A program made the translations under genes and the position numbers. Under the pieces are notes generated by a model. The model searched no databases. It was not told the origin of the DNA and was given only the letters and a program-made list of their open reading frames with translations. A DNA stretch of 64,000 bases from Diplocarpon mali (taxonomy: Eukaryota > Ascomycota > Leotiomycetes > Helotiales > Drepanopezizaceae): contig JAENRP010000207.1 of NCBI GenBank assembly GCA_024741835.1, positions 1-64,000 on the forward strand. Reading direction: 5' to 3'. This document shows, piece after piece, positions 5,371 through 63,020 of the stretch; position 1 is the stretch's first letter; each line of letters starts with the position of its first letter.

Positions 5371-6780
5371 ATGACCTTTAATCTTATACTACTTAAGAGA
5401 AGTGAAAGGTTAACTGCACCTCTACTACTAGGCCTTACTACTACTAGTTCTATAGGCCTTATTGCTAACCCTAGTCCTAAAGATATTCCCTCTCCTAAGC
5501 CTACTTAAGAAGAAACCTCCCCTAGTACCGATTTCACTCTCGGTCCTAGCCTGCGAGTAGATTCTCGAAATACCCTATTACCGTCGATTGAAGTTAAGGA
5601 AGAAGATATACTCTCCTTAAAGACGTCTACCCTTATTATATCGGCCCCTCTCTTTTCAGCTGCTTAGCAAGCCGAAATTGCAAACCTTATTAGTGCTGCT
5701 ATAGCTGCTGCTCTTTAAAATAATACTACTGCCCCTTCTTCCTTAAATGCTAGCCCTTAGAATACTCAGTCCCTTACCGCCGACTTATTACCTCCCTTAG
5801 ACTACTACCTTTTAATCATCCGACCTTTAGTCCTAGCTATTAACCCTTATTAAATTAAGTACCTTTAAACCCATTTTAGTAACTATTAAGGCAAAATCAC
5901 TTATAATACTTAAAAGATAGCTATAAAGGTATTTATTTAAAAGTACTTAAGTAACTTTACTTTAAAAGAGGATTAGATTACTACTTACTTTAAGTATATA
6001 ATAGGTAAAGCTTAAAACCTAATCTTATAATATATAAATCCTATCTTTACTAATAAGTTTATATATGCTGCCGATATCCTTAAGGTCTTAAATTAAAGGT
6101 TCTTTAATTATAATTATATTTAATCTGCTAAGCTTAAATATAATAGGCTAATTATAAGTTTATTATTATATAATAAGTTTTAATCTAAGTTTATTACCTT
6201 TACTATAGCTAATAAGATCGATCAGTCTTGCTAGTTCGATAACGTTTATAAAAAGGTCTCCTTAGCCTTAAAGAACGACCTTTAAGTAAAGAAGTATAAA
6301 ATGAATAATAATTATACTACTTTAAATAAGTTCTTAGCTATTGCGGACCGCAAGGCCTATAATATTAAGTAAGAAAAGGCCTATAACGCTTAATAAGTCG
6401 CCTTTGCTATCGCGTTCTCTCTCTTAAAGGACCGCGTCCTTAGCATACTAAAAAGGGAATTATAAAGACCTATAGCTATAGCTACCTTTTTAGCTTTTTG
6501 CACTTATTCCCTCTTGCTAGCGGCCTATTAAAAAGGGTCTGCCAGCCTAAAGCTGTCGTCTAATCTCTACTATAACTGTAAGGCCCTTAATTACTATACG
6601 ATAGACTGCCTTAAGCTAAAGAAGCAAAGCGAGTTTATAATAGCTAAAGTTGAGATAGAAAACGACCTACTATTAGGAAACTGCTAAATTATAGTAAAGA
6701 CTCCTACTATAGTATAAGTTATAATTTATAAAAAGACTTAGATTTTAATTCCCGCTTATTAATAAGCGGCTACTAGTTCT
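5371..6780 (+). pseudogene. Gypsy-A gag (capsid/nucleocapsid), RIP-inactivated
   Basis: An ATG at 5,371 opens a frame that continues past 6,700 with only RIP-type stops. The protein would build the virus-like particle. Near the C-terminus, at about 6,562-6,606, sits a nucleocapsid knuckle of spacing x2, x4, x4 that now reads Y-x2-C-x4-Y-x4-C: the first Cys (TGC to TAC) and the His (CAC to TAC) were both lost to RIP. A palindromic unit in frame near residues 56-63 adds T-L-G-P-S-L-R-V-D-S. The frame is -1-related to pol, which opens around 6,783. Confidence 0.85.
5535..5559 (+). repeat. Palindromic unit in Gypsy-A gag
   Basis: CACTCTCGGTCC and CCTGCGAGTAG arms read in the gag frame as T-L-G-P-S-L-R-V-D. 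A single in-frame copy near the capsid N-terminus. Confidence 0.8.
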
Positions 6781-6782
6781 TA

Positions 6783-8314
6783 ATTCTTATAAAACTAGCT
6801 TAAAATAGATCATTTATTAAAATAGTTGCCTATATTAATAATAGAGCTAATATTTTTAGTATTATTAAGACGTCTTTAGTATACCAGCTCTTTTAAAGAC
6901 TTAAGGTGAAGTTTATTAAACTGCCTAAACCGATTACCCCTACTAGCTATAATAGCCTTAAGGGAGAAACTATTTGATTTGCTATCTTACTTACCCTTAT
7001 AATCGATAGGCGATAAATAAACTCCCCTTTTCTAATTATAAGCTTAAGAGTAATTGACATTTTAATTAGTAGAAAGTTCCTAAAGTACTATAACTTTAAA
7101 TAATCCTATAGAAAAGGAAAAAATAGTATATCCTAGCCTAAGGATATGCCTATTATCCCTTACTTTAATTAACGCATATTAATCGATCTCTCGCAGCTAA
7201 TAAAACCCCTAATAGCCTAATAAGATATCGATTGTTAAGCAGCTATAATAGATACTAAGGATAAAGACCTAAGAATGGCCTAAGCCTAGCTCTTAATACT
7301 AGCAAGCAATAATACCTCGAATCCTACTTTTAGTCCCGGCCTATAAGTAAAATCTGCGAACTCGAATCCTACTCTTAGTCCTAGCCTATAAGTAGCCTCT
7401 TATAGACTTAAGGATAGCAGTTTCTTTAAAGATTTAAAAAGAGATTTAAACTATATAAAGAAGGCCTTATTAGGAGTACTAGACCCCCTGCTCCCTCTTT
7501 TAGTAAAGAGAACTGCTCCTTTAAAGATAGCTTACTAAATCAGCTTAATCTTAGCCTTAGCAATCGGCGCCCTTTACTACGGCTTTATAATTAAGGTAAG
7601 GCGAGCTATATAAGCTTAGGAACTAGCGCTTGAAGAGTTTATATTCGTAAGCTCGGTTTATAATCTAAACTAAGAAATCAATTACCGAGAATCGGCTAGG
7701 CAAGCTGAAATTAGCTCCCTTAGCCTTAGTTCGGCGCTATAAGCTAAGTATAAGAGCAACGACGAGCTAATAGACTAAAAGCTCTTGCCTTAGTATATTA
7801 AGTTCAAGAACGTCTTCAGTCGCCAGGCCTTTAATTAGCTACTAAACCCTAGGCTAGGGGTAGATTATAAAATCGAGCTAATAGGCAAGAACAACTTGAT
7901 AATTAAGCCCTTCTGCCGCCTTACTAACGAATAGCTCTTAAAGGTCAAGAGCTATATTCTTAAGAACCTATATAAAGGATTTATTAAAGCTTTAAGTTCC
8001 CCTTAGGTAGCCCTAATCCTCTTTATTAGAAAAGCTAATAGCTCCCTATATCTATATATCGATTATCAGAAACTAAACGCTTTAATAAAGAAAGACCCTT
8101 ACCTAATCCCTCTTATTAATAAGATAATAGCATATATATTGAAAGCTTATATTTTTATAAAAATCGATATATAATAAGCCTTCTACTATATTTATATATT
8201 AGCTAACGCTAAGGACCTAATTACCTTTTGCATATGTTATAAGACTTATAAATATAAGGTTTTGCTATTTAGGCTAATAAATAGGCCTACTACCTTTTAG
8301 TAGTTTATTAATAA
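6783..8314 (+). pseudogene. Gypsy-A pol, first part: protease and N-terminal reverse transcriptase
   Basis: This frame (one base back from gag) carries a protease-like stretch near 6,800-6,900, a linker with two palindromic units, then reverse transcriptase. Recognisable segments are F-I-x-A-L-S-S-P near 7,980, Y-I-D-Y-Q-K-L-N-A near 8,053-8,079, I-F-I-K-I-D-I near 8,150 and Q-F-I-N-N-I-L at the end. It is cut by Copia-B in the middle of the palm domain and resumes in register at 15,935. Stops are almost all TAA or TAG at expected Gln, Arg or Trp positions. It has no intact function. Confidence 0.88.
7325..7394 (+). repeat. Two palindromic units in the Gypsy-A protease-RT linker
   Basis: Units at 7,325-7,350 and 7,370-7,394 are both in the pol frame. 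They read N-P-T-F-S-P-G-L-x-V-K-S and N-P-T-L-S-P-S-L-x-V-A-S, where x is a RIP stop at a former Gln. Confidence 0.82.
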
Positions 8315-8319
8315 TATTC

Positions 8320-8517
8320 TGTCGTGCAGAATGGGCGGAGTCTCCACTTATTCTGGAGACCCTTTATATGACTCCTGCTAAGTCATAGACTCTCCCTTTT
8401 CTTTCCGAAGTCTCTTTACCAGATATATATTAGATAATAATACAATTAATCATCTTTATATATATTAGCGAGCCTCTTAAGCGACCTAATAAAGGCCCTC
8501 CAGCCGACTGTACTATA
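8320..8517 (+). repeat. Copia-B 5' LTR (198 bp)
   Basis: The outer start TGTCGTGCAGAATGGGCGG is intact, while the inner end CTGTACTATA is mutated from CTGCACCACA, the form kept in the 3' LTR. Confidence 0.95.
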
Positions 8518-8530
8518 GTTATAAGCCCTA
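8518..8530 (+). other. Copia-B primer-binding site (initiator tRNA-Met anticodon arm)
   Basis: GTTATAAGCCCTA abuts the LTR. Undoing one TpG-to-TpA change gives GTTATGAGCCC, the complement of the conserved GGGCUCAUAAC anticodon loop and stem of initiator tRNA-Met. Priming by a half-tRNA cut in the anticodon arm, as in Drosophila copia, is inferred. Confidence 0.75.
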
Positions 8531-8639
8531 TGAGCATTTTAATATGCTTTCTCTTTATATGCAACTGGCTAAAGGGCCTTTTAAGCTTTTAACCGACTTT
8601 TCGAGTATTTATAATGACTTAAAGGACCTTTATTTTCAA

Positions 8640-11600
8640 TTAACAAATCTCTAATTTCCGATCGAACCTTATTTGCAAACTTTATTTATATATCTAACCT
8701 TTTTTATTAGACTCTATTTAATATATCTGACTCTTTAAGCATCTCTAAGCCTTGCTTTAATACCTCTGCCTCTTAGGTAAAGTGGTTTAGTAAATATATA
8801 TTTTTTACTAAGCTTTATAATATTACTATTTTTGCTAATCTAAGACTCTTATTCAAGTCAATTATAGAGACCGAGCCTTAAGCTCCCTTTATATAAGAGC
8901 TTAAGGAATTGGAAACGGCTAACTTCTGCGTAGTATACGCGAGGTTATATAAAGAGTATATAGCGATTCTATCCAAATAGATTTACACCTGCTTTCCCTT
9001 AGGAGATCTATTAAAGGCTCCTTTTTTATAGGCTTCTTATAAGGATATTAAAGATGAGTATAAAATCCTAATAAAGGAGTACTATATATGCAAGGAAACT
9101 TGGAAGACCTAATGCAAATACTATAAGCTACTACTTAAATAGGTCTTTAAGACTGTCGATAGAACGCTCTTAGCTTCTGCGATAGCCTAAGTATAAATCC
9201 AAGCTGAGAAGCTCTCCTCTTTAATACTTAATAGAGATACTCCTATAAGTAGAACTACTACTAATAACTTATATTCTAATTTGGTGAATTAGCAACTCTT
9301 ACTCTAAGGCCTAGTATCCATTTTAAAATGTGATATTGCGCCTTTTAATAAGGCTATTTAGTCTTAGACAAGGCTCTAATACCGCGATATACTACGCTAA
9401 GGTAAGACTAAGAGAATTAATACTTAGCAGTAGATCTAGGAGTAGCAAGAGGCGTACCGCCTAGTAGAGTAATATAGTCTTCTTAAGATTAAAGGGAGAC
9501 TAGGAGTTACTGACTTTTTAGACTTAGTTATAGTAAAGATTAATCTAAGTTAGGCGACTCGCTTAAAGGAGGAAATTATTACTAATAAGCAGATAGGAAC
9601 CCTTATATAAGTACGATTTAATATAGCTAAGCCGCGCCTTAGCAGGTATTGAATCTAATAGAGCGATCGATAATAAAAGGCTAGCAGTTTTTACTACTTA
9701 AGAGTCTTTTTTAAATGCCGAAACCCCTTTGCAGGCTCTAGCGAGCAGCTCTCGAAATCGCTCTATAAGCTCTAGAAGGGAGATTAGGCCTAAGTGCCCT
9801 TATAAAGGCTTTAAAAATCACTATTAGAAGCCTTAGGACTATTGGAAACTGTTATATACTATAGATAAGCGTAAGGAAAATATAAAGGTTCTTCCCTTAT
9901 AAGAGGAGGTCCTACGAATACAAAAGGCGTTAAACGCAAGAGACTAGTTCAAGGGTCTTTAAGCATAGCTTAAGGAGAATGATATTACAGTAATAGTAAT
10001 TGATAAATTTAAAGGAAAGGCTTTAGCCTTTAAAGAGGATAGTTCAGGCGATAAAAGGGAGAACTTATTAGTCTTTATAGTAATAGATCCCTTTGCCTTT
10101 AACGCTTTTGAAGAATCGTTTAATATCTACTACCTTTTTAAGCTAGAACGCTACCTGCTCTCTTTAAATATGCTCTTTAATAATTGCGCAGCTACTTATA
10201 TTATTAATTCAAAGGATTTACTTATCGCAAGCACCTTTAAGCCTTTTAGCGACTTATAGCAATATATTAAAGCAAGTACTTTGAAACTCTTAATTATTAA
10301 GAGAGGTGATAGATATATAGTAAACTCTTTTCTATAGCATAATAGCTCTCCTATAGGGATAATGCTTTATAATATTGCTATTATAAAGGAGTTTACTACT
10401 AATATTATCTTAAAGAGGCTCTTTGCAGATAAGGGTTTTTAGTACTCTAGAGTAGACCTCATTTTACGCTTTAGGAGCATTAGAGATTCTATAAAGCAAG
10501 CTTAGTTAGAGCGTTGCTATAATCTCATTTTCTTTAAATATAAGCCTATCAACTATTTAGATCTCTTAAATATGCTTTAATATAACTTCTCTACCTTAAT
10601 AGCGTTTCCTATAGCTGAGACAACGCTTTATAATAGGTTTTAATCTAGCTATATACCTACTAGAGTATAGGATAATAATGCGTATACTTAATACCTTTGC
10701 GCTGGTTACCTAGGCGCAAAGGCTCTTTAAGCGCTAGTTAAGTGCGCTAAAGGAGTAAAGATCAAGGGAATATAGAGGCTAGAGTGCCTTATATGCGCAG
10801 TAGCGTCTGCTAGGCAAGTTATTTCTTATGCTACCTTTGAAAACCGATCTCTAAGGCCCTTCTTTAGGATCTCCTAGGATCTCTTTAACTTTTTAAATAA
10901 CTTATATAATAGTTGCTTATAGGTTCTTTTAATTAAGGATAAGTATAGCGGTATACTTTAAACATTCCTACTAAGATTAAAGGGCGGAGATATAGTTATA
11001 AAGGTCCTCTAGGCCTTTAAAGCATAAGTAAAACGCTAATATAGGCTTTCCATTTGCAAAATTAAGTAAGATAATAATACTTTAGTAATCTCCTTAAGGA
11101 AAGACTCTCTTATAAAGTACTAGAAATAGGTAAAAGAGGAAGGAATCGATTTAAAGCTTACTCCTACCTATATATATTAACCTAATAGAGGCGCGGAGCA
11201 AGTAGGAAGGAAGTTGATTAAACGCTTTATTAAAATGAGAATCTACGCCAGGCTTTTAATAAGCCTTTAGCTAGAGGTTATAGAGGCTGCTATATACCTT
11301 TATAATATCTCTTTACTTACTAGGAAGAAGATGATCTTATTAAATAAGGCTCTCTATAGTTGGTTTAAGTAGTATTTTCGATTCTATAAGCTACTGCTTA
11401 TTAAGCAGATGACAGCAAGCTTAAAGCCCGACTGGAATTGCGTTTATATATATAGCACTTATATATACCCTTTAATTAAGGAGAGAGAGGTAGGGAGGGA
11501 CCGCCGAACCTTTAAAATTGAACTATAAGGGTACCTAGGTTACTTAATTAGATATATTACCTCTAATATTTATAGAATCTGGGTTCCTATGCTTTAGTAA

Positions 11601-15934: not shown

Positions 15935-17302
15935 TCTTTAATTACCTTAACGATTTCTACTTTACCTACTTAAATAATATTCTAATCTACTTAGAAAACT
16001 CCCTTAACTATAAGATTTATATTAAGAAGATCTTAGGAATTCTTTAATACTATAGCCTTTAAGCAGATATTAAGAAAAGCGAGTTCGAGGTTATTAAGAC
16101 TAAGTTCCTAGAGTTTATTATTAGAGTTTATAAAATTGAAGTAAACCTTAATAAGGTCTTAATCATTTAAAAGTAAAAATATACTAAGAATGTATATAGC
16201 GTATAAAGCTTCTTAAGGTTCTGTAATTTCTACTAAAGGTTTATTCAAGGCTATAGTTATATCTGCCGACCTTTAATAGCTCTTATAAGGAACGTTCCTT
16301 TTAATTTTAATAACGCTTATAAAGAAGCTTAGGAAACTCTACGCTTAAGCCTTTAAACAATCCCGATTTTATACTACTATTACTTTTAAAAGCAGACAAG
16401 GCTTAAGACCGACGCCTCTAACGGTATAGTCGCTAGCGTATTCTCCTAACTTTAGGAAGACGATAACTACCACCTAATTAGGTACTTTTCAAAGACTATA
16501 AATAACGCCGAGCTAAATTATCCTATTTATAATAAAGAGCTCCTAGCGATTTTTAAATCGTTCTACTAATATAAAGCAGAACTACTTAAGGCTTAGAAAA
16601 TAGTATATATATATATAAATCATAAAGCCCTTAAGTACTTTATAACAACTAAAGACTTAATAGCCTAGTAGGCCTATTAAGCAGAGTTCTTTACTAACTT
16701 CAACTTCCTTATTATATACTAAATAGGCATAATGAATACGCTAGCTAATACACTCTTATATTAAGACCAGGAGCTAACCCCTCTTAAGGCCAGGAAACGA
16801 GCTTTATACCACTAGCAGCTCTTACCTAACGATAAGCTCTTTATAGAAGTACTTGCTACTAGAAACGATTCCACTCCTAGGCCCGCCCTATAAGTGACTT
16901 TAGCGCAGATCAATTCTACTCCTAGGCCCGGCCTACAAGTGACGATTATGCTAATCGCGCTAATAGAAGCACCTACCGACCTAATATTAAGGGTCGAGTA
17001 TAATATAGTAAGCTACTATATTATTAATAAAGTCATTTAAGCTAATAAGACCTCCCTTAAGCTATAGAAGTTCTGAGATAAGGCGCAGAGCTATAGCCTC
17101 GACTATGAACTTAGCTAAGGCAAACTCTTCTTCTAAGGTAGACTTATTATACTATCCCAACCTCCTAAACTGCGAACAGCCTTAATTTATTATATATATA
17201 AGTAACCTTGCGTCGTATACGCTGGAATTGGGAAAATAAAGCTTTTAATAAGAAGAAAATACTATTAGAAAAGCCTTAGCAGCGACGTCGGCACTTATAT
17301 TT
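15935..17302 (+). pseudogene. Gypsy-A pol, second part: RT C-terminus, RNase H, integrase N-terminus
   Basis: It continues the reverse transcriptase exactly in frame after Copia-B. Y-L-N-N-I-L-I-Y at about 15,967-15,990 is the decayed Y-L-D-D-I-L-I-Y core. RNase H begins near 16,400 with K-T-D-A-S-N, followed by R-Y-F-S-K-T and I-Y-N-K-E-L-L-A-I near 16,530. A linker holds two in-frame palindromic units. The integrase zinc domain starts near 17,230 and is cut by Copia-1b one codon before the Cys of the N-C-Y-Y motif. Confidence 0.9.
16872..16944 (+). repeat. Two palindromic units in the Gypsy-A RNase H-integrase linker
   Basis: Units at 16,872-16,897 and 16,917-16,944 are in the pol frame. 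They read N-D-S-T-P-R-P-A-L-x-V-T and N-S-T-P-R-P-G-L-Q-V-T. The second is among the best-preserved copies. Confidence 0.87.
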
Positions 17303-17835: not shown

Positions 17836-20800
17836 CTTTTCGATAGGAGGAGTGCCTTTAACTATTTAATTTATTTGATTTTAAATGCAATTCTATTTGA
17901 AACGGTAATAGCTTCCGATTCTGATTGAAATACTAAGCCTAAAGACCTCTAACTCTCTCGGAAGAACTGGCAATAATAGTTCGACGATTTAGAGCTTTAC
18001 TTTAAGAGCAAAGGCATTGAAATAGCGATTTAAAAGACACTTATTAAATATATAAGAATAGCCTCTTATACTCCTTCTACTAATTCGTCTACTTTTACTT
18101 TAATAGCTAATACAACTACTAAGGATTTACTAGATATATTAAATAAGCTTAGCTTAAGAGCTTTAGTAGATAATAACTAAGAATCTTAAAGGTAGATTTT
18201 AAATGTAAAAAAGGAGAAGGAGTATAGGCTAGCCTTAGCCAAATGCAAGCTTAAGATTAATAGAGGTTTAAGCGACGAAGACTGAGATTTTATTCGAGTT
18301 TATAATAATGCAAAGATAAGATAGGATATATTAAAGGTAAAATACTCTTAAACAACTGCCTTTAATACCTAGCATCTACTATAGCAGATCACTTTATTTT
18401 AATATAGAAAAGACAAAGATAGTAAGAATATAAATATAAATATAGACTCTACTTAGTCTATACTATATAAAGCGAAAAGGAGAGTAAGAGCCGCAGATCC
18501 TAAGATAGCTATAACTTTTAAAGAAACTCAGCTTTTTAATTTCCTACTTAATAGCCTCCTTCCTAAGTTCGCTATTATGAAATAATCTCTTCTTATCTAA
18601 CCTAACCTTAAGATCTATAAGAAGATTGACCTCCTTTAAACTATTGAGTAAGACCTTAAAGGACGCTTTAAATCGGCAAATGTCGCATTATAAGGCAACG
18701 ATAAGCCTAAGAAGAGGAAGGAGCGCGGGATAAGCCCTTAAGCTTATCGGGGATGCTACTTCTATAATAGTGCTTATAATATTACTAATTATAAAGTTAA
18801 AAGGCAACTAATTGATATAATTGCCAGCTTTAATATTAAAAAGCAATTGAAGCAGAAGTTAAAAAGCAAACTGCCCTTATCCTACTAAAGGCCGCAACTA
18901 TTAAAGAAAGGCAAAGGAAAAGGCTATTTAGCTAAAACTTTAATAAATACCTCTAATAATAATAGTAGGTTATTTGAACTTAAATCTACTTTTAATAATT
19001 CAAACGATAATTATAATAAAGATGCTTATATCTTAAAAGCCGATCTTCGTAAGATCCTTAAATCCGATTAGTATAGTAATACTAGTTATATAGCATATAT
19101 AATTAATAAACCCTACCTATTTAAAGGCCCGCTTATTAAAATAAAAAGGCGCTCTATTAAGGTTGGCGGTAGAAGGTTATATATAAACTCAATAAGTATA
19201 ATAGAGATGAATATTGCTAGCATTTCTTTCCTTTTGCAAAATATTCTCCTTATACCTAGCCTAAGTATTAATCTTTTATTTAACCGCAAGATCTATATAG
19301 AGTTGAATTATATAGGAGTTTTTAATAATCAATTTATATAGTTTATAAATAATAACTATAAAGTGATCTTTAAAGTTAAAATCAAAGATGGACTTTATAT
19401 TATCTTAAAAGTAATATTATAAAAATTGACTTCTAAGCCGGACCTATAAGTAGATTCCTTTAAGGAAAGTGCACTCTTTACCCTAATATAATTAAGTGAA
19501 AATAAGGAGAATAGATAGACTCTTAAATTAGGATTGCAAGTAAAATTCGCAAAAATGACTCTTAAGCCAGGACTATAGGTAGATTGCAAGGTATCCTTAA
19601 AGATAACTCCTAAGCTAGGATCATAAGTGAATTTAATAGAAATGACTTTTAGGCTAGGATCGCAAGTAGATTTTGCAAATTCGCTAACAATGACTCTTAG
19701 GCTAGGATCGTAAGTGAAATTCGTAGAAATGACTCTTAGGCTAAGACCGCGAGTGAAATTCGCAAATTCGTTAAAGACAACTCCTAAGCTAAGACTGCGA
19801 GTAGATCTTGCGGTTTTATTAAAAACGACTCTTAAGCCAGGCTTGCAATTAGAAAATGGCAAAACCTCGAATTGCTATCACTAGTCCTTTCTAACTGCTA
19901 ATAATAAAGCATCGACTGATAATAGGCTACTAAAGCTATTAGAAGCCGAAAGCCTATTAAAGTATTAGCTAATATATAGAAGATTCGCACATTTAAGGCT
20001 AAAGAAATTAAAGGGCTTATATAAGGTCTCGACCTTAAAATAGAAGATCTAAGTACTAAAGGATCGCCTAATATGCCGAATTTGCAAGCTAATAAAACTT
20101 TAAAATCAGATGCGAACTAAGCTTAGTTTATAAAAAGATTCAATACTAGCATTAATATCTATTAATACTATTAGACTATTTATAACCTTAATTAAAGGAA
20201 ATAATTAGTTTTCTTAAATAGTAGATAACTCCACTTAATAGATATAGACTATTTGCGCTAAGACCAAATCTAAGCTTATAAAAAAGCTAGAAACTTAAAA
20301 AGTGATAGAGGAATACTAGACCTAGTTAAAGCTAATAGCTATTAAATCTAATAATATATTAAAGATTAGGGCAAAGCTTAATAAATAGGTAAAATAAGGA
20401 GTTTATTACAAACCAATTGTAATATATAAAGGTTCTTATTAGAATAGCATTGCTAAGTAAAGCATCTAGCAAGTAGAGACTGACTATTGCGCTCTATTAT
20501 AAGATACTAACCTACTATTGGAATTCTAGGACCTTGCAGTTAAGGCAGATATATACTTATAAAATAGAATAGGTAGTAGACTAATAGTTAATAGCACCTG
20601 AATATTACTATATAAGGCATATTTTAAATAGAAATTAAGCCTGGACTATATCTGCGTCTTTAGAAGCGTCTACTACTCCTATATTAGCCTAAAGTCCTAA
20701 CTTATAGATATAAAGAGTAAGAAGCTAATAGACCGAGGTAAAGAGTATATATTTATTAAGTATATTAAATAGATAATAAAACAATAAATAGTATATACGC

Positions 20801-22960: not shown

Positions 22961-23113
22961 GACTCCTAGGCCCGCCTTGCGAATTAGGTCATATAATCTT
23001 ATAAAGGAAAGTTTTTAAATCGACTCCTAAGCCTAAACTATAAGTCAAGTTATATAATCTTATAAAGGAATATCTTTTAAGAAATTTGACTCCTAGTCCC
23101 GCCCTATAAGCGG
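22961..23113 (+). repeat. Three palindromic units after pol (Copia-1b)
   Basis: Same trio as in 1a, at about 22,961, 23,022 and 23,088. The first two arms read GACTCCTAGGCCCGCC and GACTCCTAAGCC. Non-coding here. Confidence 0.85.
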
Positions 23114-25162: not shown

Positions 25163-25186
25163 ATTCGCGGGCCCGGCCCAGGAGTA
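25163..25186 (-). repeat. Palindromic unit after Copia-C1 pol
   Basis: TTCGCGGGCCCGGCCCAGGAGT, GC-rich and nearly fully self-complementary at its centre. It lies outside the polyprotein frame. C3 has the matching copy at 62,994. Confidence 0.8.
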
Positions 25187-25275
25187 AAAAAAAATCACCC
25201 CTTAATAGAAGTGCAAAAAAAAAATCACCTTATAATAGAGGTGTAAAAAAAATCACCCCTTAATCGAGGTGCAGA
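25187..25275 (-). repeat. Three tandem copies of a ~29-bp A-rich unit (Copia-C1)
   Basis: AAAAATCACCCCTTAATAGA followed by AGGTGC or AAGTGC is repeated three times with slight changes, directly downstream of the pol stop on the minus strand. The last copy overlaps the stop codon. C3 carries the same array at about 62,915-62,993. Confidence 0.8.
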
Positions 25276-27059: not shown

Positions 27060-27139
27060 GACTTACGGTTCTGGCCTAGGAATGAAATCATCGTTATTAT
27101 AAGAGTTAGAATTGACTCGCGGTCCTGGACCGGGAGTTA
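27060..27139 (-). repeat. Two palindromic units in the Copia-C1 integrase-RT linker
   Basis: Units at 27,060-27,084 and 27,114-27,139. C3 has three at the homologous place (60,989-61,110), so the number differs between sister copies while the frame is kept. The second unit, GACTCGCGGTCC then GGACCGGGAGT, is almost a perfect inverted repeat. Confidence 0.87.
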
Positions 27140-28525: not shown

Positions 28526-28618
28526 TGACTCCCAGTCCTAGCCCGCGAGTGGAAATTGGTCCTAAAGAGGAATCGCCTTTTAGTAAGGAATTGACTCCTA
28601 GGCCCGGCTCGCGAGTAA
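28526..28618 (-). repeat. Two palindromic units in Copia-C1 after the zinc knuckle
   Basis: Units at 28,526-28,551 (GACTCCCAGTCC ... GCGAGT) and 28,593-28,618 (GACTCCTAGGCC ... GCGAGT), between nucleocapsid and protease. Confidence 0.87.
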
Positions 28619-30567: not shown

Positions 30568-31938
30568 TAGCTAACGATTCCTCAATTTTGATAAGAAGCA
30601 AGAGGTAGAAGAACTGACTCCTAGGCCCGGCTCGCGAGTAGAAATTAAGGAGGAGCCGGAATTGACTCCTAGGCCTGGCTTGCGAGTAAGAATTGGCCCT
30701 AGGGTTAATAGTGGCATAGTATGCCTAAAGAGATCATTATCTGACTCTTCGTCTTCCTTCTAAATCTTCCTAAAAGGCTTCTTACCTTTTAGTAATAATA
30801 ATAGCAAGGACTTATCGTCCTTACCTTTAAGGTAATAGAATACGTACTTCTTCCCTAAATCCTTCTCCTAGGCCTCTCTTTTCGATTTATTAATTGTAAA
30901 GCAATCTTCTGCCTTATAGTATAGCTCTGGTTGCTTATAATAAGGATAGGGGGAGTTAAGGGAGGAGGTGTTAGTATTCCTAAAGGTGCTCTTCTTTAAG
31001 TCTTTAAAACCTCCCTTATTTTCTAACTTCTTATAATTAGAGAAATGCGGCTTACTAGCCGATTTGTTACCGTATAAAACAGTTCTATTCATTTTTAAAC
31101 TCTATAAGGCTTAAGCTTCATTAGTAATATCTTTAATAAAAGCTTCGAGCGTAATCTCTGATTTTCGTTTAACTGCTATAGCTAAGCGAAGGTTAAAGCA
31201 TTATTAATCTACCTAAATGGGCCATCTATTAGAACAGCTAGCAATAAATATAATAGAGTGCTAGTGAAAGGGAGGGGCAGAGTCGAGAGCTTCTAATTTA
31301 GTAATTAAAAGCCTAAAGGCGATGATATAAGCTTTAAGTGAATTAAAGTAGTTATATTTAATAGTAATATAGGTCTATATAGCGTTATATTTAAGCACTA
31401 TTCCAAATCCTTTGTACTATTTTTAAAGAGCTTCCTATATATCTAAGGCAGATTTATCGCCTTCTATATAAGCTAGTAGGCCTAGTTTGCAATTAAGTAT
31501 AATAGCAAGCTTTATCTAAGATTCCTTAGCTTCCTATCTAATCTAATTATCCCTTTCCTTAAGAGTAATAGAACGGTCCTATAAGTCAACCTTAAGTAGA
31601 GCATATATTCTAACTTTTATATAAAGATATATAGTCAAAGCGTTTGACTTTATAAGGTTCAAAACCTTATTCCTTTACTAGCTATAGTCCTCTACGCCTT
31701 TAAGCTTTTAAGACTCAAAGAGGCTAAGGGTAGCTGAAGACAATAACAATATCTTATTTATATATATATATATAGAGTTATTAAAAGGAGGAGAAGGAGA
31801 AGGAGGAGGAGATAAACTATTGAATTCGAGTTTAGGGTATTATATATCAGTCCTTTTAAAAATAGGTGATTCAAGCAGTAGAGTACTTTTAGCAATTAAG
31901 CTAGTAATCTTAGCTATCAGTCCTAATAATTCAGCTAT
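30568..31938 (-). pseudogene. Copia-C2 gag, RIP-inactivated
   Basis: On the minus strand it starts at 31,938 with ATA in place of ATG and reads the same capsid as C1 and C3. The segment at 30,868-31,092 includes N-R-T-V-L-Y, G-F-K-D-L-K-K-S-T and the destroyed knuckle Y-P-Y-Y-K-Q, then A-E-D-C-F. Pairwise differences from C1 and C3 are mostly C-to-T or G-to-A. It is truncated by Gypsy-A before the protease. Confidence 0.85.
30616..30689 (-). repeat. Two palindromic units in Copia-C2
   Basis: Units at 30,616-30,641 and 30,664-30,689, both GACTCCTAGGCC-type. Same site as in C1, but the spacer between them differs in length (about 48 bp against 67 bp start to start). Confidence 0.87.
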
Positions 31939-42883: not shown

Positions 42884-43035
42884 TACTCGTAGGGTAGGAC
42901 TAAGAGTCAAATTTCCTAAAAGATATTCCTTTATAAGACTATATGACTTGACTTGCAATCCAGGCCTAAGAGTCGATTTAAAAACTTTCTTTTATAAGAC
43001 TATGTAACCTAACTTATAAGGCAGGCCTAGGAGTC
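42884..43035 (-). repeat. Three palindromic units after pol (Copia-1c)
   Basis: Units at about 42,884-42,910, 42,949-42,976 and 43,010-43,035, the same trio as in the sister copies. Confidence 0.85.
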
Positions 43036-46000: not shown

Positions 46001-47938
46001 TAGATGCGCGAATCTTCTATATATTAGCTAATACTTTAATAGGCTTTCGGCTTCTAATAGCTTTAGTAGCCTATCGTTAGTTGATACTTTATTATTAGCA
46101 GCTAAAAAGGACTAGTAATAGCAGTTCGAGGTTTTACTATTTTCTAGTTGCAAGCCTAGCTTAGGAGTCATTTTTAGTAAAACCGCGAGATCTACTTACA
46201 GTCCTAGCCTAGGAGTCATTTCTACTAAATTCACTTATAATCCTAGCTTAAGAGTCCATTTATTCTCCTTATCCTTGCTTAATTGTATTAAGGCAGAGAG
46301 TGCACTTTCTTTAAAGGAATTCACTTATAGGTCTAGCCTAAGAGTCAATTTCTATAATATCACCTTTAAAATAATATAAAGTCTATCTTTAATTTTAACC
46401 TTAAAGATCACTTTATAGTTATTATTTATAAACTATATAAATTAATTATTAAAAACTCCTATACAATTCAATTCTATATAAATCTTATAGCTAAATAAGA
46501 GATTAATACCTAAGCTAAGTATAAGAAGAACATTTTATAAAAGGAAAGAAACGCTAGCAATATTCATCTCTATTATACTTATTAAGTCTATATATAACCT
46601 TCTACTACTAACCTTAATAGAGCACCTTTTTATTTTAATAAGCAGGCCTTTAAATAGGTAGGGTTTATCAATTATATATGCTATATAATTAGTATTATTA
46701 TACTAGTCGGATTTAAGGATCTTATAAAGATCGGCTTTTAAGATATAGGTATCTTTATTATAATTATTATTTGAATTATCAAAAGTGGATTTAGGTTTAA
46801 ATAACCTACTATTATTATTAAAGGTATCTGCTAAAGTTCTGGCTAAATAGCCTTTTCCTTTATCTTTCCTTAGTAGTTGCAGCCTTTAGTAGGATAAAGG
46901 CAGTTTGCTTCTTAACTTCTGCTTCAATTGCTTCTTAATATTAAAGCTAGCAATTATATTAATTAATTGCCTTTTAACTTTATAATTAGTAATATTATAA
47001 GCACTATTATAGAAGTAGTATCCCCGATAAGCTTAAGGGCTTATCCTACGCTCCTTCCTCTTCTTAGGCTTATTATTACCCTATAATATAGCATTTGCTA
47101 ATTCAAAGTGTCCTTTAAGGTCTTACTTAATAGTTCAAAGGAAGTCGATCTTCTTATAAATCTTAAGGTTAGGTTAGATAAGAAGAGATTATTTTATAAT
47201 AGCAAACTTAAAAAGGAGGCTATTAAGTAGGAAACTAAAAAGCTAAGTTTCCTTAAAAGTCATAGCTATCTTAGGATCTATAGCTCTTACTCTCCTTCTT
47301 ACTTTATATAGTATAGATTAAGTAGAATCTATATTTATATCTATATCCTTACTATCTTTATCTTTTCTATATTAAAATAAAGTAATCTACTATAGTAGAT
47401 ACTAAGTATTAAGGGCAGTTATCTAAGAGTATTTTACCTTTAAAGTATCCTATCTTATCTTTATATTATTATAAACTCAAATAAAATCTCAGTCTTTATC
47501 GCTTAAACCTCTATTAATTTTAAGCTTGCATTTAGCTAAGGCTAGCCTATACTCCTTCTCCTTTTCTATATTTAAAATCTGCCTTTAGGATTCTCAGTTA
47601 TTATCTACTAAAGCTCTTAGGCTAAGCTTATTTAGTATATCTGGCAAATTCTTAGTAGTTATATTAGCTATTAAAGTGGAAGTAGACAAATCGGTAGAGG
47701 GAGTATAAGGGGCTATTCTCGCATATTTAATAAGTGTCTTTTAAATCGCTATTTTAATGCCTTTGCTCTTAAAGTAAAGCTTTAAATCGTCGAACTATTA
47801 TTGCTAGTTCTTCTAAGAGAGTTGGAGGTCTTTAGGCTTAGTGTTTCGATTGGAATCAGATGCTATTGCCGTTTTGAATAGAATTGCATTTAAAATCAAA
47901 TAAATTAAATAGTTAAGGGCACTCCTCCTATCGAAAAG
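43040..47938 (-). pseudogene. Copia-1c gag-pol polyprotein, RIP-inactivated
   Basis: It reads leftwards from 47,938 to the stop at 43,040 without a frameshift (1,633 codons). Domains are as in 1b: gag, a mutated knuckle near 47,010, protease near 46,500-46,700, four palindromic units at 46,145-46,345, pre-integrase and integrase 45,0-46,1 kb, reverse transcriptase with Y-I-D-N written GAC-AAT near 44,050, RNase H near 43,200. Because the Asp codon still ends in C, the Asn probably arose by CpG-to-CpA change. As in 1b, no in-frame start ATG was found. Confidence 0.88.
46145..46345 (-). repeat. Array of four palindromic units between protease and integrase (Copia-1c)
   Basis: Four units in about 200 bp, in the gag-pol frame. 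One has lost part of its spacing relative to 1b. Same site as the nine-unit array of 1b. Confidence 0.86.
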
Positions 47939-52797: not shown

Positions 52798-55700
52798 CTT
52801 TTCGATAGGAGGAATGCCCTCAACTATTTAATTTATTTGATTTTAAACGCAATTCTATTTGAAATAGCAATAGTATCCGATTCCGATCGAAATACCAAGC
52901 CTAAAGACCTCTAACTCTCTTAGAAGAACTGGTAACGATAGTTCGACGATTTAAAGCTTTACTTTAAGAGTAAAGGCATTAAAATAGCAATTTAAAAGAC
53001 ACTTATTAAATATATAAGAATAGCCCCTTATACTCCTTCTACCGATTCGTCTACTTCTACTTTAATAGTTAATATAATTGCTAAGGATTTGCCAAATATA
53101 TATTAAACAAGCTTAGCTTAAAAGCCTTAATAGATAATAACTGAGAATCTTAAAGGCAGATTTTAAATATAGAAAAGGAGAAGGAGTATAAGCTAGCCTT
53201 AGCCAAATGCAAGCTTAAGATTAATAGAGGTTTAAGCAATAAAGACTAAGATTTTATTCGAGTTTATAATAATACAAAGATAAGATAGGATACTTTAAAG
53301 GTAAAATACTCTTAGACAACTGCCTTTAATACCTAGTATCTACTATAATAGATCACTTCATTTTAGTATAGAAAAGATAAAGATAGTAAGGATATAGATA
53401 TAAATATAGACTCTGCCTAGTTTATACTATATAAAGCGAGAAGGAGAGTAAAAGCCGTAGATCCTAGGATAGCTATGACTTTTAAGGAAACTCAGCTTTT
53501 TAATTTCCTACTTAATAGCCTCCCTCTTAAGTTTGCTATTGTAAAATAATCTCTTCTTATCTAACCCAACCTTAAGATCTATAAGAAGATCGACTTCCTT
53601 TAAACTATCAAGTAAGACCTTAAAGGACACTCTGAATCGGCAAATGCTATATTATAAGGTAACGATAAGCCTAAGAAGAGGAAGGAGCGTAAGATAAGCC
53701 CTTAAGCTCATTAGGGATGCTACTTCTATAATAGTGCTTATAATATTATTAATTATAAAGTTAGAAGGCAACTAATTAATATAGTCGCTAGCTTTAATAT
53801 TAAGAAGTAATTAAAGCAGAAGTCAAGAAGCAAACTGCCCTTATCCCACCAAAGGTCGCAACTACTAAGGAAAGGCAAAGGAAAAGGCTATTTAGCCAGA
53901 ACTTTAGCAGATACCTCTAATAATAATAGTAGGTCATTTAAACCTAAATCTACTTCTAATAATTCAAATGATAATTATAATAAAGATGCCTATATCTTAA
54001 AAGCCGATCTTTATAAGATCCTTAAATCTAATTAGTATAGTAATACTAATTATATAGCATATATAATTAATAAACCCTACTTATTTAAAGGCCCGCTTAT
54101 TAAAATAAAAAGGCGCTTTATTAAGGTTAGTAGTAGAAGGTTATATATAGACTTAATAGGTATAGTAAAGATGAATATCGCTAGCGTTTCTTTCCTTTTG
54201 CAAAATATTCTCCTTATACCTAGTTTAAGCATTAATCTCTTATTTAGCCGCAAGATCTATATAAAGTTGAATTATATAAGAGTTTTTAATAATCAATTTA
54301 TATAATTTATAAATAACAATTATAAAATGATCTTTAAAGCTAAAATTAAAGATAGACTTTATATTATCTTAAAGGTAATATTATAGAAATTGACTCCTAG
54401 GCCAGACCTATAAGTGAATTCCTTTAAGGAAAGTGCACTCTCTACCTTAATACAATTAAGCAAGGATAAGGAGAATAAATAGACTTTTAAGCTAGGATCG
54501 CAAATAAAATCTAGGAAATCGACTCTTAAGCCAGGACCGCGAGTAGATCTTGCGGTTTTATTAAAAACGACTCTTGAGCTAGGCTTGCAACTAGAAAACG
54601 GCAAAACCTCGAACTGCTATTATTAGTCCTTTTTAGCCGCTAATAATAAAGTATCAACTGATAATAGGCTATTAAAGCTATCAGAAGCTAAAAGCCTATT
54701 AAGGTATTAGCTAATATATAAAAGATTCGTGCATCTAAGGCCAGAGAAATTAAAGGGCCTATATAAGGTCTTAACCTTAAAATAGAAGATTTAAGTACTA
54801 AAGGATCGCTTAGTATGCCGAATTTGCAAGCTAATAAAACTTCGAAATCGGACGCAAACTAAGCTTAATCTATAGAAAGATTCGATACTAGCGCTAATAT
54901 CTATTAATACTACTAGACTATTCACAACCTTAATTAAAGGAAATAATTAGTTTTCTTAAATAGTAGATAACTCCACTTAGCAAATATAGACCATTTGCAC
55001 TAAGACTAAATCTAAGCTTATAGAAAAGCTAAAAACTTAGAAAGTGATAAAGGAACGCTAGACTTAGTTAAAGCTAATAGCTATTAAGTCTGATAATATA
55101 TTAAAGATTAAGGTAAAGCTTAATAAATAGGCAAAATAAGGAGTTTATTATAAACTAACTATAATATACAAAGGTTCCTATTAAAATGGCATCATTAAGT
55201 AAAGCATTTAGCAAGTAGAGACTAACTATTATACTCTATTACAAGATACTAACCTACTATTAGAATTCTAGGACCTTACAGTTAAGGTAAACGCATACTT
55301 GCGAAATAGAATAAGTAGTAGACTAATAGTCAATAGCACCTAAATATCACTATATAAGGCATATTTCAGATAGAAACTAAGCTTAGACTATATTTACATC
55401 TTTAAAAGCGTATGCTACTCTTATATTAGCCTAAAGTCCTAGCCCGCAGGTATAAAGAGCAAGAAGCTAATAGACTAAGGTAGAAAGTATATATTTATTA
55501 AGTATATTAAATAGATAATAAAGCAATAGATAGTATACGCGCTAGATCTAAGGCAAGTAATTACATCCTTAATAGTTGAGTTTAATAAATCTTAAAATAA
55601 AGAGAAGCTATCCTTAAAGCTCTATATACTTAAAGATTCGCAAGGTATACTACTTAATAGTAATACTATTAAGCCGAACTAATAACCCCTTTCTCTTAGC

Positions 55701-57698: not shown

Positions 57699-57701
57699 GG
57701 A

Positions 57702-57855
57702 CAACTCCTAGGCCCACCCTATAAGTTAGGTTATATAGTCTTATAAAGGAAAGTTTTTAAATCAACTCTTAGGCCTAGACTATAAGTCAAATTATATAAT
57801 CTTATAAAGGAATATCTTTTAAGAAATTTGACTCCTAGTCCTACCTTATAAGTAG
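57702..57855 (+). repeat. Three palindromic units after pol (Copia-1d)
   Basis: Units at about 57,702, 57,763 and 57,828. Same trio as in 1a, 1b and 1c. Confidence 0.85.
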
Positions 57856-58186: not shown

Positions 58187-59527
58187 TAATAAGCGTTATC
58201 TTAATAATAAAACAGTAGCTACTCCCCTTCTGGAGCGCTATGTAATAATCTAAGCTTATGCAAGATTCGTCACTATGGCTGAATTATCAGGACTGATAGC
58301 TGAGATTATTAGCTTAATTGCTAAAAGTACTCTACTGCCTGAATCACCTATTTTTAAAGGGACTAATATATAGTACCTTAAACTCGAATTTAATAGTTTA
58401 TCTCCTCCTTCTCTTCCTTTTCCTCCTTTCGATAACTCTATATATAAATATACAAATAAGATATTGTTGTTATCTTCGGCTACCCTTAGCCTCCCTAAGT
58501 CTTAAAAGCTTAAAGGCGCAGAGGACTATAGCTAATAGAGGAATAAGGTTTTGAACCTTGCAAAGTCAAACGCCTTGATTATGCATCTTTATATAAAAGC
58601 TAGAATATATGCTCTACCTAAGGTTGACTTATAGGACCGTTCTATTACAAATAAGGAAAGGGATAATTGGGTTAGATAGGAAGTTAAGGAATCTTAGATA
58701 AAGCTTGCTATTATATTTAATTGTAAACTAGGCCTACTAGTTTATATAGAAGGCGATAAATCTACCTTAGATATATAGGAAGCTCTTTAAAAATAGTACG
58801 AAGGATCTGGAATAGTGCTTGAATATAATGCTATATAGACCTACGTCACTATTAAATATAATAACTTCAATTCACTCAAAGCTTACGTTATCGCTTTTAG
58901 GCTTTCGATTATTAAATTAGAAGCTCTCGACTCTGCCTCTCCCTCTTACTAGCACCCTATTATATTTATTGCTAGCTGTTCCAATAGATGGCCTATTTAG
59001 GCAGATTGATAACGCTTTAACCTTCGCTTAGCTATAGTAGCTGGACGAAAATCAGAGATTACGCTTAAAGCTCTTATTAAAGATATTACTAACGAAGCTC
59101 GAGCCTTATAGAGTTTAAAGATAAATGGAACTGTCTTATATAGTAATAAATCGGCTAGCAAGCTGCATTCCTCTGACTATAAGAAGTCAGATAATAAGGG
59201 AGGTTTTAAAGACTTAAAGAAGAGCACCTCTAGGAATACTACCAACTCCCTTAACTTCCTTAACTCCCTCTGTCCTTATTGCAAGCAACTAGAGCCATAC
59301 TATAAGGTAGAAGATTGCTTTGCAATTAATAAATCGAAAAGAGAGGCCTAGGAGAAGGACTTAGGGAAGAAGTACGTATTCCGTTACCTTAAAGGTAAGG
59401 ACGATAAGTCCTTGCTATTATTACTAAAAGGTAAGAAGCCTTTTAAGAAGATTCAAAAGGAAGACGAAGAGTTAGATAATGACCTCTTTAGGCATACTAT
59501 GCTATTACTAACCCTAGGGCTAATTCT

Positions 59528-59608
59528 CACTCGCGAGCCAGGCCTAGAAGTCAATTCCAACTCCTCCCTAAGGCCAATTTCCACTTGCAGGCCAGGCCTA
59601 AGAGTCAG
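59528..59608 (+). repeat. Two palindromic units in Copia-C3 after the zinc knuckle
   Basis: Units at 59,528-59,554 and 59,581-59,608, in frame. They read T-R-E-P-G-L-E-V-N-S and T-C-R-P-G-L-R-V-S-S. Their DNA is in the opposite orientation to units such as 16,917, yet the peptide is nearly the same. Confidence 0.88.
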
Positions 59609-60988
59609 TTCTTCTACTTACTTCTTATTAAAATTGAGGAATCGTTAGCTATATAATATAGGTACTAGTAAGTATATCTCTAATAATCTCTTTAAGTTCA
59701 CTTCCTATACTACTTAAGATAATCTACCCTTCTTAAGTATAGTTAATAGATCTATTTAACCTTTTAGCATTAGTACTTGTAAAGTCAACGCACTTAAATC
59801 TAATAGAAAGGTATATATTCTTAAGTTAATTAATACTCTTTATATACCTTAATCTCCTATCTGCTTATACTTAAGTAGCAAATTCAATAAAATCAAAAGC
59901 TTCTATCGAAATAGTAAGCTATTCTTATCTAATAAGAAGGAAATTTACACTATTGATAATAATATGTATATTAACGAGGAATAGCCTTCTACTAACTCCT
60001 CTAGTTATGTAAGTGGATATGCTCTCTTAGCTACTATTGAGAATAGACCTTTTGATATTAAGCTCTAGTACCGTCGATTAGGCCACGCTGGCCTATAAAC
60101 GGTTAGAAAGACCTAATCTGCTATTACCAATATATAGATTAAGGAAATAAAATCAGGGAAGATGCGAATTTGCGCTCCTTGCAAGAAAGGCAGACCTCTC
60201 TGATATATTAATAAACGTTCAGCTTACCCTCGACTTATAAAGGCACTTAACGAGCTATACGTCAACGTAGTTCATCTAAAGCCAACTGGCCTTAATAGCT
60301 ACAAATACGCTTCTATCTTTACTTGCGCAGTTATAATAGTTAAATAGGGATAGACTTATATAAATAAATCTAATGCCTTTAAGGCAAATAAGAAGATGAT
60401 CATCCTCTTATAAACTTAATACAATCGCATAATTAAGTAGTAGAGAACTAATAGAAGTAAGGAGTACTCTCTTATATAGATGCGAATACTTATAGAAAAC
60501 CTTAGTATAGTTTTAGAGGAATCTACTCCATATATATTAGAATAAGACGGCAGATTGGAACGATTAATTCGTATACTAATGGAAAAGTTGCAAATAGCTA
60601 TAATTGACTAAAATATCCCCTCCTTTCTCTAGCCTTACCTTCTTCTTTCGATAATATATATTACTAATCTTACCGCCTCTAATATTCTAAGTGGCAAGAC
60701 TTTATATAAGGTCTTTTGGAATAATATTAAGCCTAATAAGCCTTATACTCCCTCTATTAAGCATCTCTAAGTACTAGGCTATCGCATCTATATGCTAATT
60801 GAAAAAGAAAGGCGAACTTAAAGTAACAAACTCGCTCTAAGAGCAAAGGTAGGTACTCTTATCGGATTTGATAGTAGAAGTATCTATCAGATCTATATAC
60901 TATCGCAAATAGGTGAAAAGATTATTCGATCATCTTACGTTCGATTTGATAAAGATAGCCTAATTATAAAGCCGCAATTAAGAGGTGA

Positions 60989-61110
60989 TTTGACTCTTAG
61001 TCTAGGACTGCGAGTTAATTCTTACTCTTACGATTTCACTCCTAGGCTGGGACCGCGAGTCAATACTAACTCTTATAATGATTTCACTCCTAGGCCGGGA
61101 CCAGGAGTTA
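60989..61110 (+). repeat. Three palindromic units in the Copia-C3 integrase-RT linker
   Basis: Units at about 60,989, 61,037 and 61,085, 48 bp apart, in frame: T-L-S-L-G-L-R-V-N-S, T-P-R-L-G-P-R-V-N-T and T-P-R-P-G-P-G-V-N-S. C1 has two here. The 48-bp period, a multiple of three, keeps the frame. Confidence 0.9.
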
Positions 61111-62914
61111 ATTCTGATTTAAGAGAAGCTAATAAAGCTGAGCTTCCAACTTTAAGAAAGAGAAGAAGACCTCCTAGTTTAAAGAATAAGGCTTACCCTC
61201 AGCCTTCCGAGAAGAGAGCTACTCGCTTAACTCATACTCTTAGATTCAAAGCTGATAACTCTAATAATAAAGAAGCCTATTTAAGCGCCTTCTATATAGC
61301 CTTACTCGACTCTTTATACCCAAATGACTTGAAAACAGTCGAATAAGCCCTCTCTTACGCTAATGCTAATAAATGGCGATCTGCGATCAACTTTAAGTAT
61401 AATTCCCTCGCTTATAAGAATATATAGGTGGTAGTAAAACGCTTAGAACTCTTTAAAGACGATAGAGTACTTAAATTAAGGCTTATCTTTAAAATAAAAA
61501 GAGACTAAAACGGGGAAATCTCCTAATAGAAGGTCAGATTCGTTATACAAGGCTATATGCAATAATAAGGTCGAGATTACAATTAGACATTTGCTAGAGT
61601 ATGCAAATCTGCGGTTTAGAAGATCGCAATTGCGCTTATAGCGCTATACGACTTTGAGCTAGATCAGTTCGACATTAAGACAGCTTTCCTTAATTCAGAA
61701 GCTAACTCTAATATCTATATCAAATTACCTCTTAGATATACTTAAGATAAGGTCGTTCTCTTATCTTAAGACCACTGTCTCAAGCTTCTTAAGGCCTTAT
61801 ATAGCTTAAAGCAATCTCTACAACTATAGTAAGAAAAGCTACAGTCCGAGCTATAAAAGCTCGATTTTCAACCTTTTGATACTAATAATTACGTATATAT
61901 CAACCGCGCCTTTCGGATTTTCATTATTACCTACGTCGACGACTTCCTTATAGTAGTAAAGAAGGGTGATATATATAATAAGTTTAAGAGAGATCTTCGC
62001 AACCTCTTCGAAATCATAAGTGGCAAACCAGCTAACTACTTCTTAAGAGTATATATAGTTAGAGATCGATAAAATAAAACGATCTCACTTTATTAAGACG
62101 CCTATATTAATAAGGTTCTTAAACGTTTTTATATAACTAATTATAAGAGCGTACTAATACCTTTTGCTAATAGCTATGAAGTTTATATAGTCAAATTTGA
62201 AGGCTAAGCCACTCTATAGGAAGTAAAGCTATACTAGGAGATCTATAGTTCTCTATAGTACCTTACGCACTATATGCGTTAGGATATACTATACTATTGC
62301 TTTATTCTTAGCAAATTCCTTACTAACCCTTTGCTATAATATATAGCAGCTTTAAAATGAGTTTTATAGTACTTGCAAGAAACGCGATTCTATTATACTA
62401 CCTTCGGAAGTAAAACAACTGACCTAGAGCTTTAGAAATTGCATAGCTACTGCGATTCTAACTAAGCAAGTGATAGAGGAAGTAGAGCCTCCTATTCTAG
62501 GGCTATCTTCTTCTTTAATAATAGCGTAATTAGCGCCTCCTTTAAGCAATAGACTATTATCGCTCTCTTATCTATAGAAGTAGAGTACGTTACTATATGC
62601 AAATTCGCATAAGAGGCCTCTTAGATACGCTAGGTACTTAAGGAAATAGGCTACGCTAGCGACGATGCTACTAAAGTCGAAATGATCTACGATAACTAAG
62701 GAGCCCTTTATCTTACCGAAAACCTTGAATATTATTAGAGAATGAAGTATATCGATATTAAGTTCTATTATATTTGGCAAGAACTTCAGAAAGGCCATTT
62801 GGACCTCTAGTATACGAATACCAAAGATAACGCCGCCGACGGCCTTACTAAGAGTTTAAATAGCTCTAACTACGCCGCCTTTATCAAATTGTTAAATATG
62901 AAGGTTCTGTACCT

Positions 62915-62993
62915 CGATTAAGGGGTAATTTTTTTTTGCACCTCTATTATAGGGTGATTTTTTTTACACTTCCATTAAGAGGTGATTTTTTTT
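62915..62993 (+). repeat. Tandem ~29-bp unit after Copia-C3 pol
   Basis: Blocks of GGTGATTTTTTTT alternate with CACCTCTATTATAG-type sequence. Counterpart of 25,187-25,275. Confidence 0.78.
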
Positions 62994-63020
62994 ACTCTTA
63001 GGCCAGGCCTGCGAGTAGAT
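62994..63020 (+). repeat. Palindromic unit after Copia-C3 pol
   Basis: ACTCTTAGGCC then AGGCCTGCGAGT, a clear inverted repeat. Non-coding position. Confidence 0.85.

What the first reader, a model, noticed from the sequence alone, without database searches (positions are those of the whole stretch)
5535..63020. Dispersed palindromic mini-element that codes nearly the same peptide in both orientations and sits in frame in several retrotransposon families
About 47 copies of a ~25-bp unit occur with 5' arm ACTCCTAGGCC, 1-2 central bases and 3' arm GGCCTGCGAGT (arms mutually complementary except 1-3 positions). They lie in Gypsy-A (gag, protease-RT linker, RNase H-integrase linker), Copia-1 (protease-integrase junction, post-pol) and Copia-C (nucleocapsid-protease, integrase-RT linker, post-pol). 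In coding regions they keep the frame and read as T-P-R-P-G-L-R-V-N-S variants. Because the DNA is a palindrome, the inverted unit reads T-R-R-P-G-L-G-V in the same phase; 59,528 and 16,917 show both orientations. Presence in unrelated families at flexible linkers suggests independent spread, like Rickettsia palindromic elements, which also insert in frame in genes. I know of no such element described for fungal retrotransposons. Copia-B, Gypsy-E, Gypsy-F and the TRIM show none.
Basis: partly seen in the sequence, partly recalled or inferred. Interest (0 to 1): 0.87.

Follow-up and report, generated by a model that had tools for sequence, protein, structure and literature searches.

The report
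Tiny palindromes inside fungal retrotransposons
A short mirror-image DNA sequence sits thousands of times inside several unrelated jumping genes of one fungus, often in joints between protein domains where it is read as part of the protein, and it looks like an ultra-short selfish element or a shared binding site of a kind I did not find described for nuclear DNA of fungi.

Summary
A 23-bp near-palindrome, about ACTCNYRGKCC-N-GGMCYRCGAGT (centre 1 bp), flanked by degenerate RAWTY on both sides, occurs 47 times in the window. A RIP-tolerant pattern finds 6,963 in the 49.4-Mb genome, 0 for the reversed pattern: roughly 10,000 units. Units sampled lie in RIP-scarred repeats, at non-homologous places of four LTR elements (two Copia, two Gypsy) plus one unassigned repeat. 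In arrays taken as coding, 135 of 135 spacings are multiples of 3; in the others 12 of 32. Centre and edges are nearly free while third-codon bases 3 and 21 are nearly fixed, also when those columns are left out of the detection, so DNA, not only the peptide, is conserved. One site uses another frame. Against simple mobility: no convincing target duplication, no empty site in five tests of 40 copies each, and within-family change is loss or gain of unit-plus-spacer modules. Best reading: an ultra-short palindromic element that entered retrotransposons several times long ago and then rode with them; a shared dyad-symmetric binding site is the main rival. Closest known: Rickettsia palindromic elements and fungal mitochondrial GC clusters.

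The parts
2234..2383 (+).
5536..5558 (+).
7326..7393 (+). 2 units (7326, 7371), Gypsy-A upstream of RT
16873..16940 (+). 2 units (16873, 16918), Gypsy-A between RNase H and integrase
19429..19850 (+). 9 units (19429, 19519, 19558, 19606, 19645, 19693, 19732, 19780, 19828), Copia-1 array between Pol_BBD and gag_pre-integrase in homologous copies, spacing 39/48/90
22962..23111 (+).
25163..25185 (-). 1 unit, Copia-C post-pol, apparently noncoding
27061..27137 (-). 2 units (27061, 27115), Copia-C integrase-RT linker
28528..28616 (+).
30617..30687 (+). 2 units (30617, 30665), second copy of the same Copia-C stretch
42885..43034 (-).
46146..46345 (-). 4 units (46146, 46194, 46233, 46323), Copia-1 array
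54393..54592 (+). 4 units (54393, 54483, 54522, 54570), Copia-1 array
57704..57853 (+).
59529..59605 (-).
60993..61108 (+). 3 units (60993, 61038, 61086), Copia-C integrase-RT linker, in frame in a 174-aa open stretch after an SH3_retrovirus match
62994..63016 (+). 1 unit, Copia-C post-pol, apparently noncoding

Best explanation
The unit is an ultra-short palindromic element (23-bp core, about 35 bp with its degenerate flanks) that was copied into several LTR retrotransposons of a Diplocarpon-like fungus at different times, mainly into linkers where about ten added codons do no harm. Shown: dyad symmetry, sharp boundaries, DNA-level conservation, presence at unrelated places, frame kept in arrays. 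Shown: units are where copies gain or lose unit-plus-spacer modules. Inferred: first entry was by copying of the palindrome (for example a hairpin taken up during reverse transcription or break repair), with no transposase of its own; later spread was passive, by transposition of the carrier, until RIP scarred the copies. The entry step itself is not shown.
For: 6,963 pattern matches against 0 reversed; sharp score gap. Four LTR elements with non-homologous sites: Copia-1, Copia-C, Gypsy-A, Gypsy-Y. Cross-family flank identity falls to background beyond about -5 and +31. Window units found with columns 3, 6, 9, 15, 18 and 21 left out of the score (52 at threshold 8, shuffles 1 and 0): base 3 is T in 48 of 52 and base 21 A in 46 of 52, while 12 and 24 carry 0.23 and 0.14 bit (base 0 is G in 33 of 52 there, 0.48 bit). 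Frame: 8 of the 9 site regions whose frame I could read from a translation use the TPRPGLRV phase; the ninth (Gypsy-Y RNase H-integrase linker) reads LAVLARES, matched by TRLPSLARKSN in the D. coronariae protein P0008, whereas five other homologues show gaps of 2-8 positions and unlike residues there. Spacings: 135 of 135 multiples of 3 in arrays taken as coding, 12 of 32 in the others. 68 of 80 distinct length differences of 20 bp or more lie within 40 bp of a unit, which is 10.7% of aligned bases. L038 and L066 differ by one module with the joint inside a unit.
Against: No empty site: R14 38 of 40 copies keep the length exactly and 2 differ by 1; X2 40 of 40; Y1 40 of 40; Copia-C post-pol site none of 40 shorter by 23-36 bp, one shorter by 15; Gypsy-A gag site none of 40 shorter by more than 1. 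Only 40 candidates of 176-270 per test were scored. No convincing target duplication: at a 30-bp shift z = 2.1, no better than shifts 28 and 33, although one search gave z 2 to 4 at that shift. No autonomous partner known. Hairpins of 8 sampled units are only modestly stable (z -0.6 to -2.9); of 50 site majorities, pair 9/15 is mismatched in 26 and pair 5/19 paired in only 7. The count of entries is inferred from non-homologous sites, not observed.
Confidence: 0.5

Rival explanations
1. A dyad-symmetric cis-acting site: a host or element protein that binds as a dimer (or an RNA hairpin signal) needs these units, so several retrotransposons gained and kept them; reading through them is a side effect.
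For: Arms conserved with a nearly free centre and edges, also at synonymous bases; units in arrays taken as coding and in apparently noncoding stretches, and in both orientations; several units per element; restricted to repeats in what was sampled (19 of 20 further strict hits matched repeats already held, the other, L052, resembles the Gypsy-Y extra ORF by eye).
Against: Unit number varies widely between copies (4 or 9 in the Copia-1 array within the window) and Gypsy-like stretches without units are present in the same window; kept frame and position at linkers suggest insertion history rather than placement for binding; pairs 9/15 and 5/19 are often not symmetric.
Confidence: 0.27
2. A repeated linker peptide (TPRPGLRV) under protein selection, for example a flexible spacer or protease site, spread between elements by template switching during reverse transcription and expanded by tandem duplication.
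For: Most coding sites share one frame and several sit at polyprotein joints; arrays vary by whole modules in multiples of 3.
Against: Units also lie in apparently noncoding stretches; one coding site uses another frame; synonymous bases 3 and 21 are nearly fixed while 12 is free; spacers are not shared between families above a reversed-flank control.
Confidence: 0.15
3. Ordinary minisatellite growth inside linkers, with similarity between families due to RIP-biased composition or chance.
For: Arrays do behave like minisatellites.
Against: Shuffled sequence of the same composition gives almost none; reversed-pattern control 0 against 6,963; a strict pattern has no match in viral contigs or the prokaryote genome contigs.
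Confidence: 0.03

Closest known systems
Rickettsia palindromic elements (RPE; Ogata et al. 2000, 2002, seen only as described in passages of review PMC10969869)
   Same: Palindromic DNA inserted in frame in protein genes, conserved peptide, many unrelated hosts.
   Different: RPEs are about 150 bp and bacterial, first reported in metabolic genes; here 23-35 bp, nuclear-type DNA, in retrotransposons, often in arrays.
Fungal mitochondrial GC clusters and ultra-short elements (yeast GC42, PMC4478555 passages; Podospora elements of Koll et al. 1996, known to me only from citations in PMC4478555 and PMC7218506)
   Same: Very short GC-rich palindromes in AT-rich DNA, mobile by inference, recombination points, merger and shuffling.
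   Different: Organelle DNA, mostly intergenic, yeast clusters flanked by short direct repeats; here inside LTR elements, often coding, no convincing target duplication.
MITEs
   Same: Inverted-repeat structure, high copy number.
   Different: Much shorter, no convincing target duplication, no partner transposase known, found only in other repeats in what was sampled (definition recalled).
Palindromic A/T microsatellites of Fusarium mitochondria (PMC7218506 passages)
   Same: Small palindromes optional between species and associated with length changes.
   Different: AT-rich, mitochondrial, described from intergenic regions.

Membership tests
Rickettsia palindromic element | Palindromic repeat found in frame in unrelated ORFs | tested here: met
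Rickettsia palindromic element | Size near 150 bp and Rickettsia host | tested here: not met
   core 23 bp with flank signal to about 35 bp; strict pattern has no match in genome contigs; sequence homology to RPE families not tested
Rickettsia palindromic element | Orthologous genes without the insert (empty sites) | tested here: inconclusive
   none within families; five of the six homologues aligned lack the unit peptide in the Gypsy-Y linker
Fungal mitochondrial GC cluster | Short GC-rich palindrome dispersed in AT-rich DNA | tested here: met
Fungal mitochondrial GC cluster | Flanking short direct repeats like a target duplication | tested here: inconclusive
   z 2 to 4, no peak above other shifts with evened sites
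Fungal mitochondrial GC cluster | Location in mitochondrial DNA | tested here: not met
   units examined lie inside LTR elements on many contigs of a 49.4-Mb assembly; the mitochondrial contig was not examined
MITE | Terminal inverted repeats plus target site duplication | tested here: inconclusive
   the unit is itself an inverted repeat; duplication not convincing
Minisatellite in a linker | Tandem units differing in number between copies | tested here: met
   arrays only; single-unit sites are not tandem

The most novel reading that the evidence does not exclude
A self-spreading nuclear palindrome of about 35 bp that parasitises retrotransposons: the first eukaryotic nuclear counterpart of protein-coding palindromes, tolerated because its centre sits on a third-codon base so that either orientation encodes nearly the same linker peptide.
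Probability: 0.33. Interest if true: 0.9.

Novelty: new variant of a known kind. Interest (0 to 1): 0.72.

Why it matters
If it is a mobile element, it is among the smallest known and lives on other mobile elements, which makes the origin of ultra-short palindromes testable in a nuclear genome with thousands of copies. If it is a binding site, it marks a shared factor used by unrelated retrotransposons. Either way it gives a frame-neutral route by which linkers of polyproteins gain length.

Tried and rejected
Target duplication: flank identity at shifts 24-39 against shuffles, no convincing peak, after an uneven-site test with z 2 to 4. Extended shared spacers between Gypsy-A and Copia-1 looked suggestive but did not exceed a reversed-flank control. 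RNA hairpin by covariation: inner pairs mismatched too often; folding only modest. Rfam: no match at gathering threshold. Pfam on pieces of the Gypsy-Y extra ORF and other open pieces: no match at the limits used, apart from one sub-threshold DUF1801 match at L026:4636-4869. Protein database search with P0001: none significant of 106 candidates; with 507 residues of the extra ORF: none of 7,999 scored. I first counted X, Y and R14 as separate families; constant offsets (Y1 to X2 4,090-4,092 bp in 8 of 9 pairs and 4,387 in one; R14 to Y1 2,251 and 2,252 in 2 of 2) show one Gypsy element. The gag-like L014/L063 repeat and the R16 units are placed with it by neighbourhood only. Of 92 cases in which a unit met a gap in another copy, those I read fit module loss (its output was cut, so not every row was seen). 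The high conservation at 20 sites could have come from the patterns used to fetch many of them, on window units with those columns left out, upheld it. Literature: searches (no paper; listings and starts of abstracts); passages of PMC7218506, PMC10969869, PMC11527701, PMC4478555; what I saw describes no such unit, and PMC11527701 has 0 occurrences of 'palindrom' in its main text. The attempt to open Koll 1996 failed.
Full report
What is there. The window (G000:C207) belongs to a 49.4-Mb assembly of 676 contigs. It is AT-rich (G+C 0.328) with TpA/ApT 1.51 and (CpA+TpG)/(ApC+GpT) 0.58, the signature of repeat-induced point mutation (the reading of these indices is recalled). It is built of nested repeats, many about 90% alike. 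A protein hit at 69% identity from Diplocarpon coronariae (P0008) and the similar genome size of that LTR-rich species, 51.2 Mb (PMC11527701, passages), suggest a Diplocarpon-like fungus; the species is not proven.

The unit. Seeds were turned into a position matrix; 47 units lie in the window, 247 in 263 kb of window plus 20 loci chosen by hits, with 0-2 in two shuffles at thresholds 8-14. The strict pattern occurs 727 times in the genome and its reversed control never; a RIP-tolerant pattern occurs 6,963 times, control 0. That pattern caught 192 of 289 matrix units in the sample, so about 10,000 is a rough figure, since most of the sample was chosen by hits. The 100 places listed, on contigs 1 to 7, fall by eye mostly into clusters; the clearly isolated one on contig 1 lies in an AT-rich stretch 72% alike to another repeat up to the unit.

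Anatomy. The core is 11 + 1 + 11 bp. Positions -5 to -1 and 25 to 29 follow RAWTY, so the symmetric stretch is about 35 bp. In the common frame bases 0, 3, 6 ... 24 are third-codon bases. With columns 3, 6, 9, 15, 18 and 21 left out of the score, the window still yields 52 units at threshold 8 (47 of them the known ones; shuffles 1 and 0); base 3 is T in 48 and base 21 A in 46 of 52, while 12 and 24 are nearly free. A peptide alone would not keep ACT and CGA. T and A are not RIP targets, so RIP did not erode them; nor is C-to-T at base 3, followed by C, in the preferred CpA context (recalled). Base 0 is free across 20 sites but G in 33 of those 52 window units. Symmetry is imperfect: base 5 varies and pairs 5/19 and 9/15 often do not match.

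Carriers. Gypsy-A carries them upstream of RT and between RNase H and integrase. A fourth, large Gypsy element (Gypsy-Y, not recognised in the window) carries them in the RNase H-integrase linker, in the tail after pol and three times in an extra downstream ORF. L052 resembles that ORF by eye and has a unit at the same place. L038 is an unassigned repeat with four units.

Frame. Among the nine site regions where I could read the frame from a translation, eight read the T-P/R-x-P-G-L/P-R/G-V phase and one reads LAVLARES. For the rest I had only stop counts: Gypsy-A gag and PR-RT and Copia-C NC-PR favour the common phase, R14 and R16 the common phase on either strand, Gypsy-A RNase H-integrase was undecided. 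The exception is informative: P0008 has TRLPSLARKSN there, and five homologues from other sources show gaps of 2-8 positions and unlike residues. So the DNA unit can sit in another frame and still be kept. Spacing gives the same picture: 135 of 135 multiples of 3 in arrays taken as coding, 12 of 32 in Copia-1 post-pol and L038. The noncoding label of the latter rests partly on that spacing, partly on the lack of an open frame.

Mobility tests. Whole-genome searches of about 320-600 bp around units gave 40 scored copies each. Lengths were equal in 38 of 40 (two differ by 1), 40 of 40 and 40 of 40 for three Gypsy-Y stretches. None of 40 lacked 23-36 bp at the Copia-C post-pol site, one lacking 15; none of 40 was shorter by more than 1 at the Gypsy-A gag site. 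Only 40 of 176-270 candidates were scored, so divergent empty copies could be missed. No convincing target duplication was found. So, for these sites, entry seems to predate the spread of the family.

Change after entry. Between copies, 68 of 80 distinct length differences of 20 bp or more are within 40 bp of a unit, against 10.7% of aligned bases; gaps of 39, 45 and 48 bp, a unit plus its spacer, make 32 of 77 raw near-unit gaps. L066 has one unit where L038 has two and 84 bp between, the joint lying in the unit. Units are therefore exchange points, as expected of any repeated stretch and as suggested for yeast mitochondrial GC clusters (PMC4478555, passages).

Judgement. DNA-level symmetry, sharp limits and presence at unlike places of unrelated elements favour an ultra-short palindromic element; lack of empty sites and target duplications leaves the entry mechanism open and keeps a shared binding site as a serious rival. 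It works like Rickettsia palindromic elements and mitochondrial GC clusters but cannot be filed as a member of either by the features tested. None of the eight paper searches listed showed a nuclear fungal counterpart; most subscription papers are outside the library.

Noticed in passing
L029 (whole), L033, L025:6900-9300; downstream of Gypsy-Y pol: An extra long reading frame with a number of stops, over 800 codons by eye, follows pol on the same strand of a large Gypsy element; no Pfam match for the pieces scanned and no homologue among 7,999 scored candidates for a 507-residue piece.
   Followed up: partly
L016:6060-6121 against window 59529: A 24-bp extra stretch next to a unit holds a second small palindrome ACTCCTAAGGAGGAGT.
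   Followed up: no
window 25186-25273 and 62911-62993: Tandem 28-30-bp repeat with a poly-A/T run directly beside the post-pol unit of Copia-C.
   Followed up: no
L065 (contig 1, 292109): Isolated unit where similarity to L038 (72%) ends at the unit's edge, another joint at a unit.
   Followed up: partly
L048, L050: Copies of the Copia-1 array with clearly higher G+C (0.37-0.40) than the window, so RIP load seems to differ between copies.
   Followed up: no
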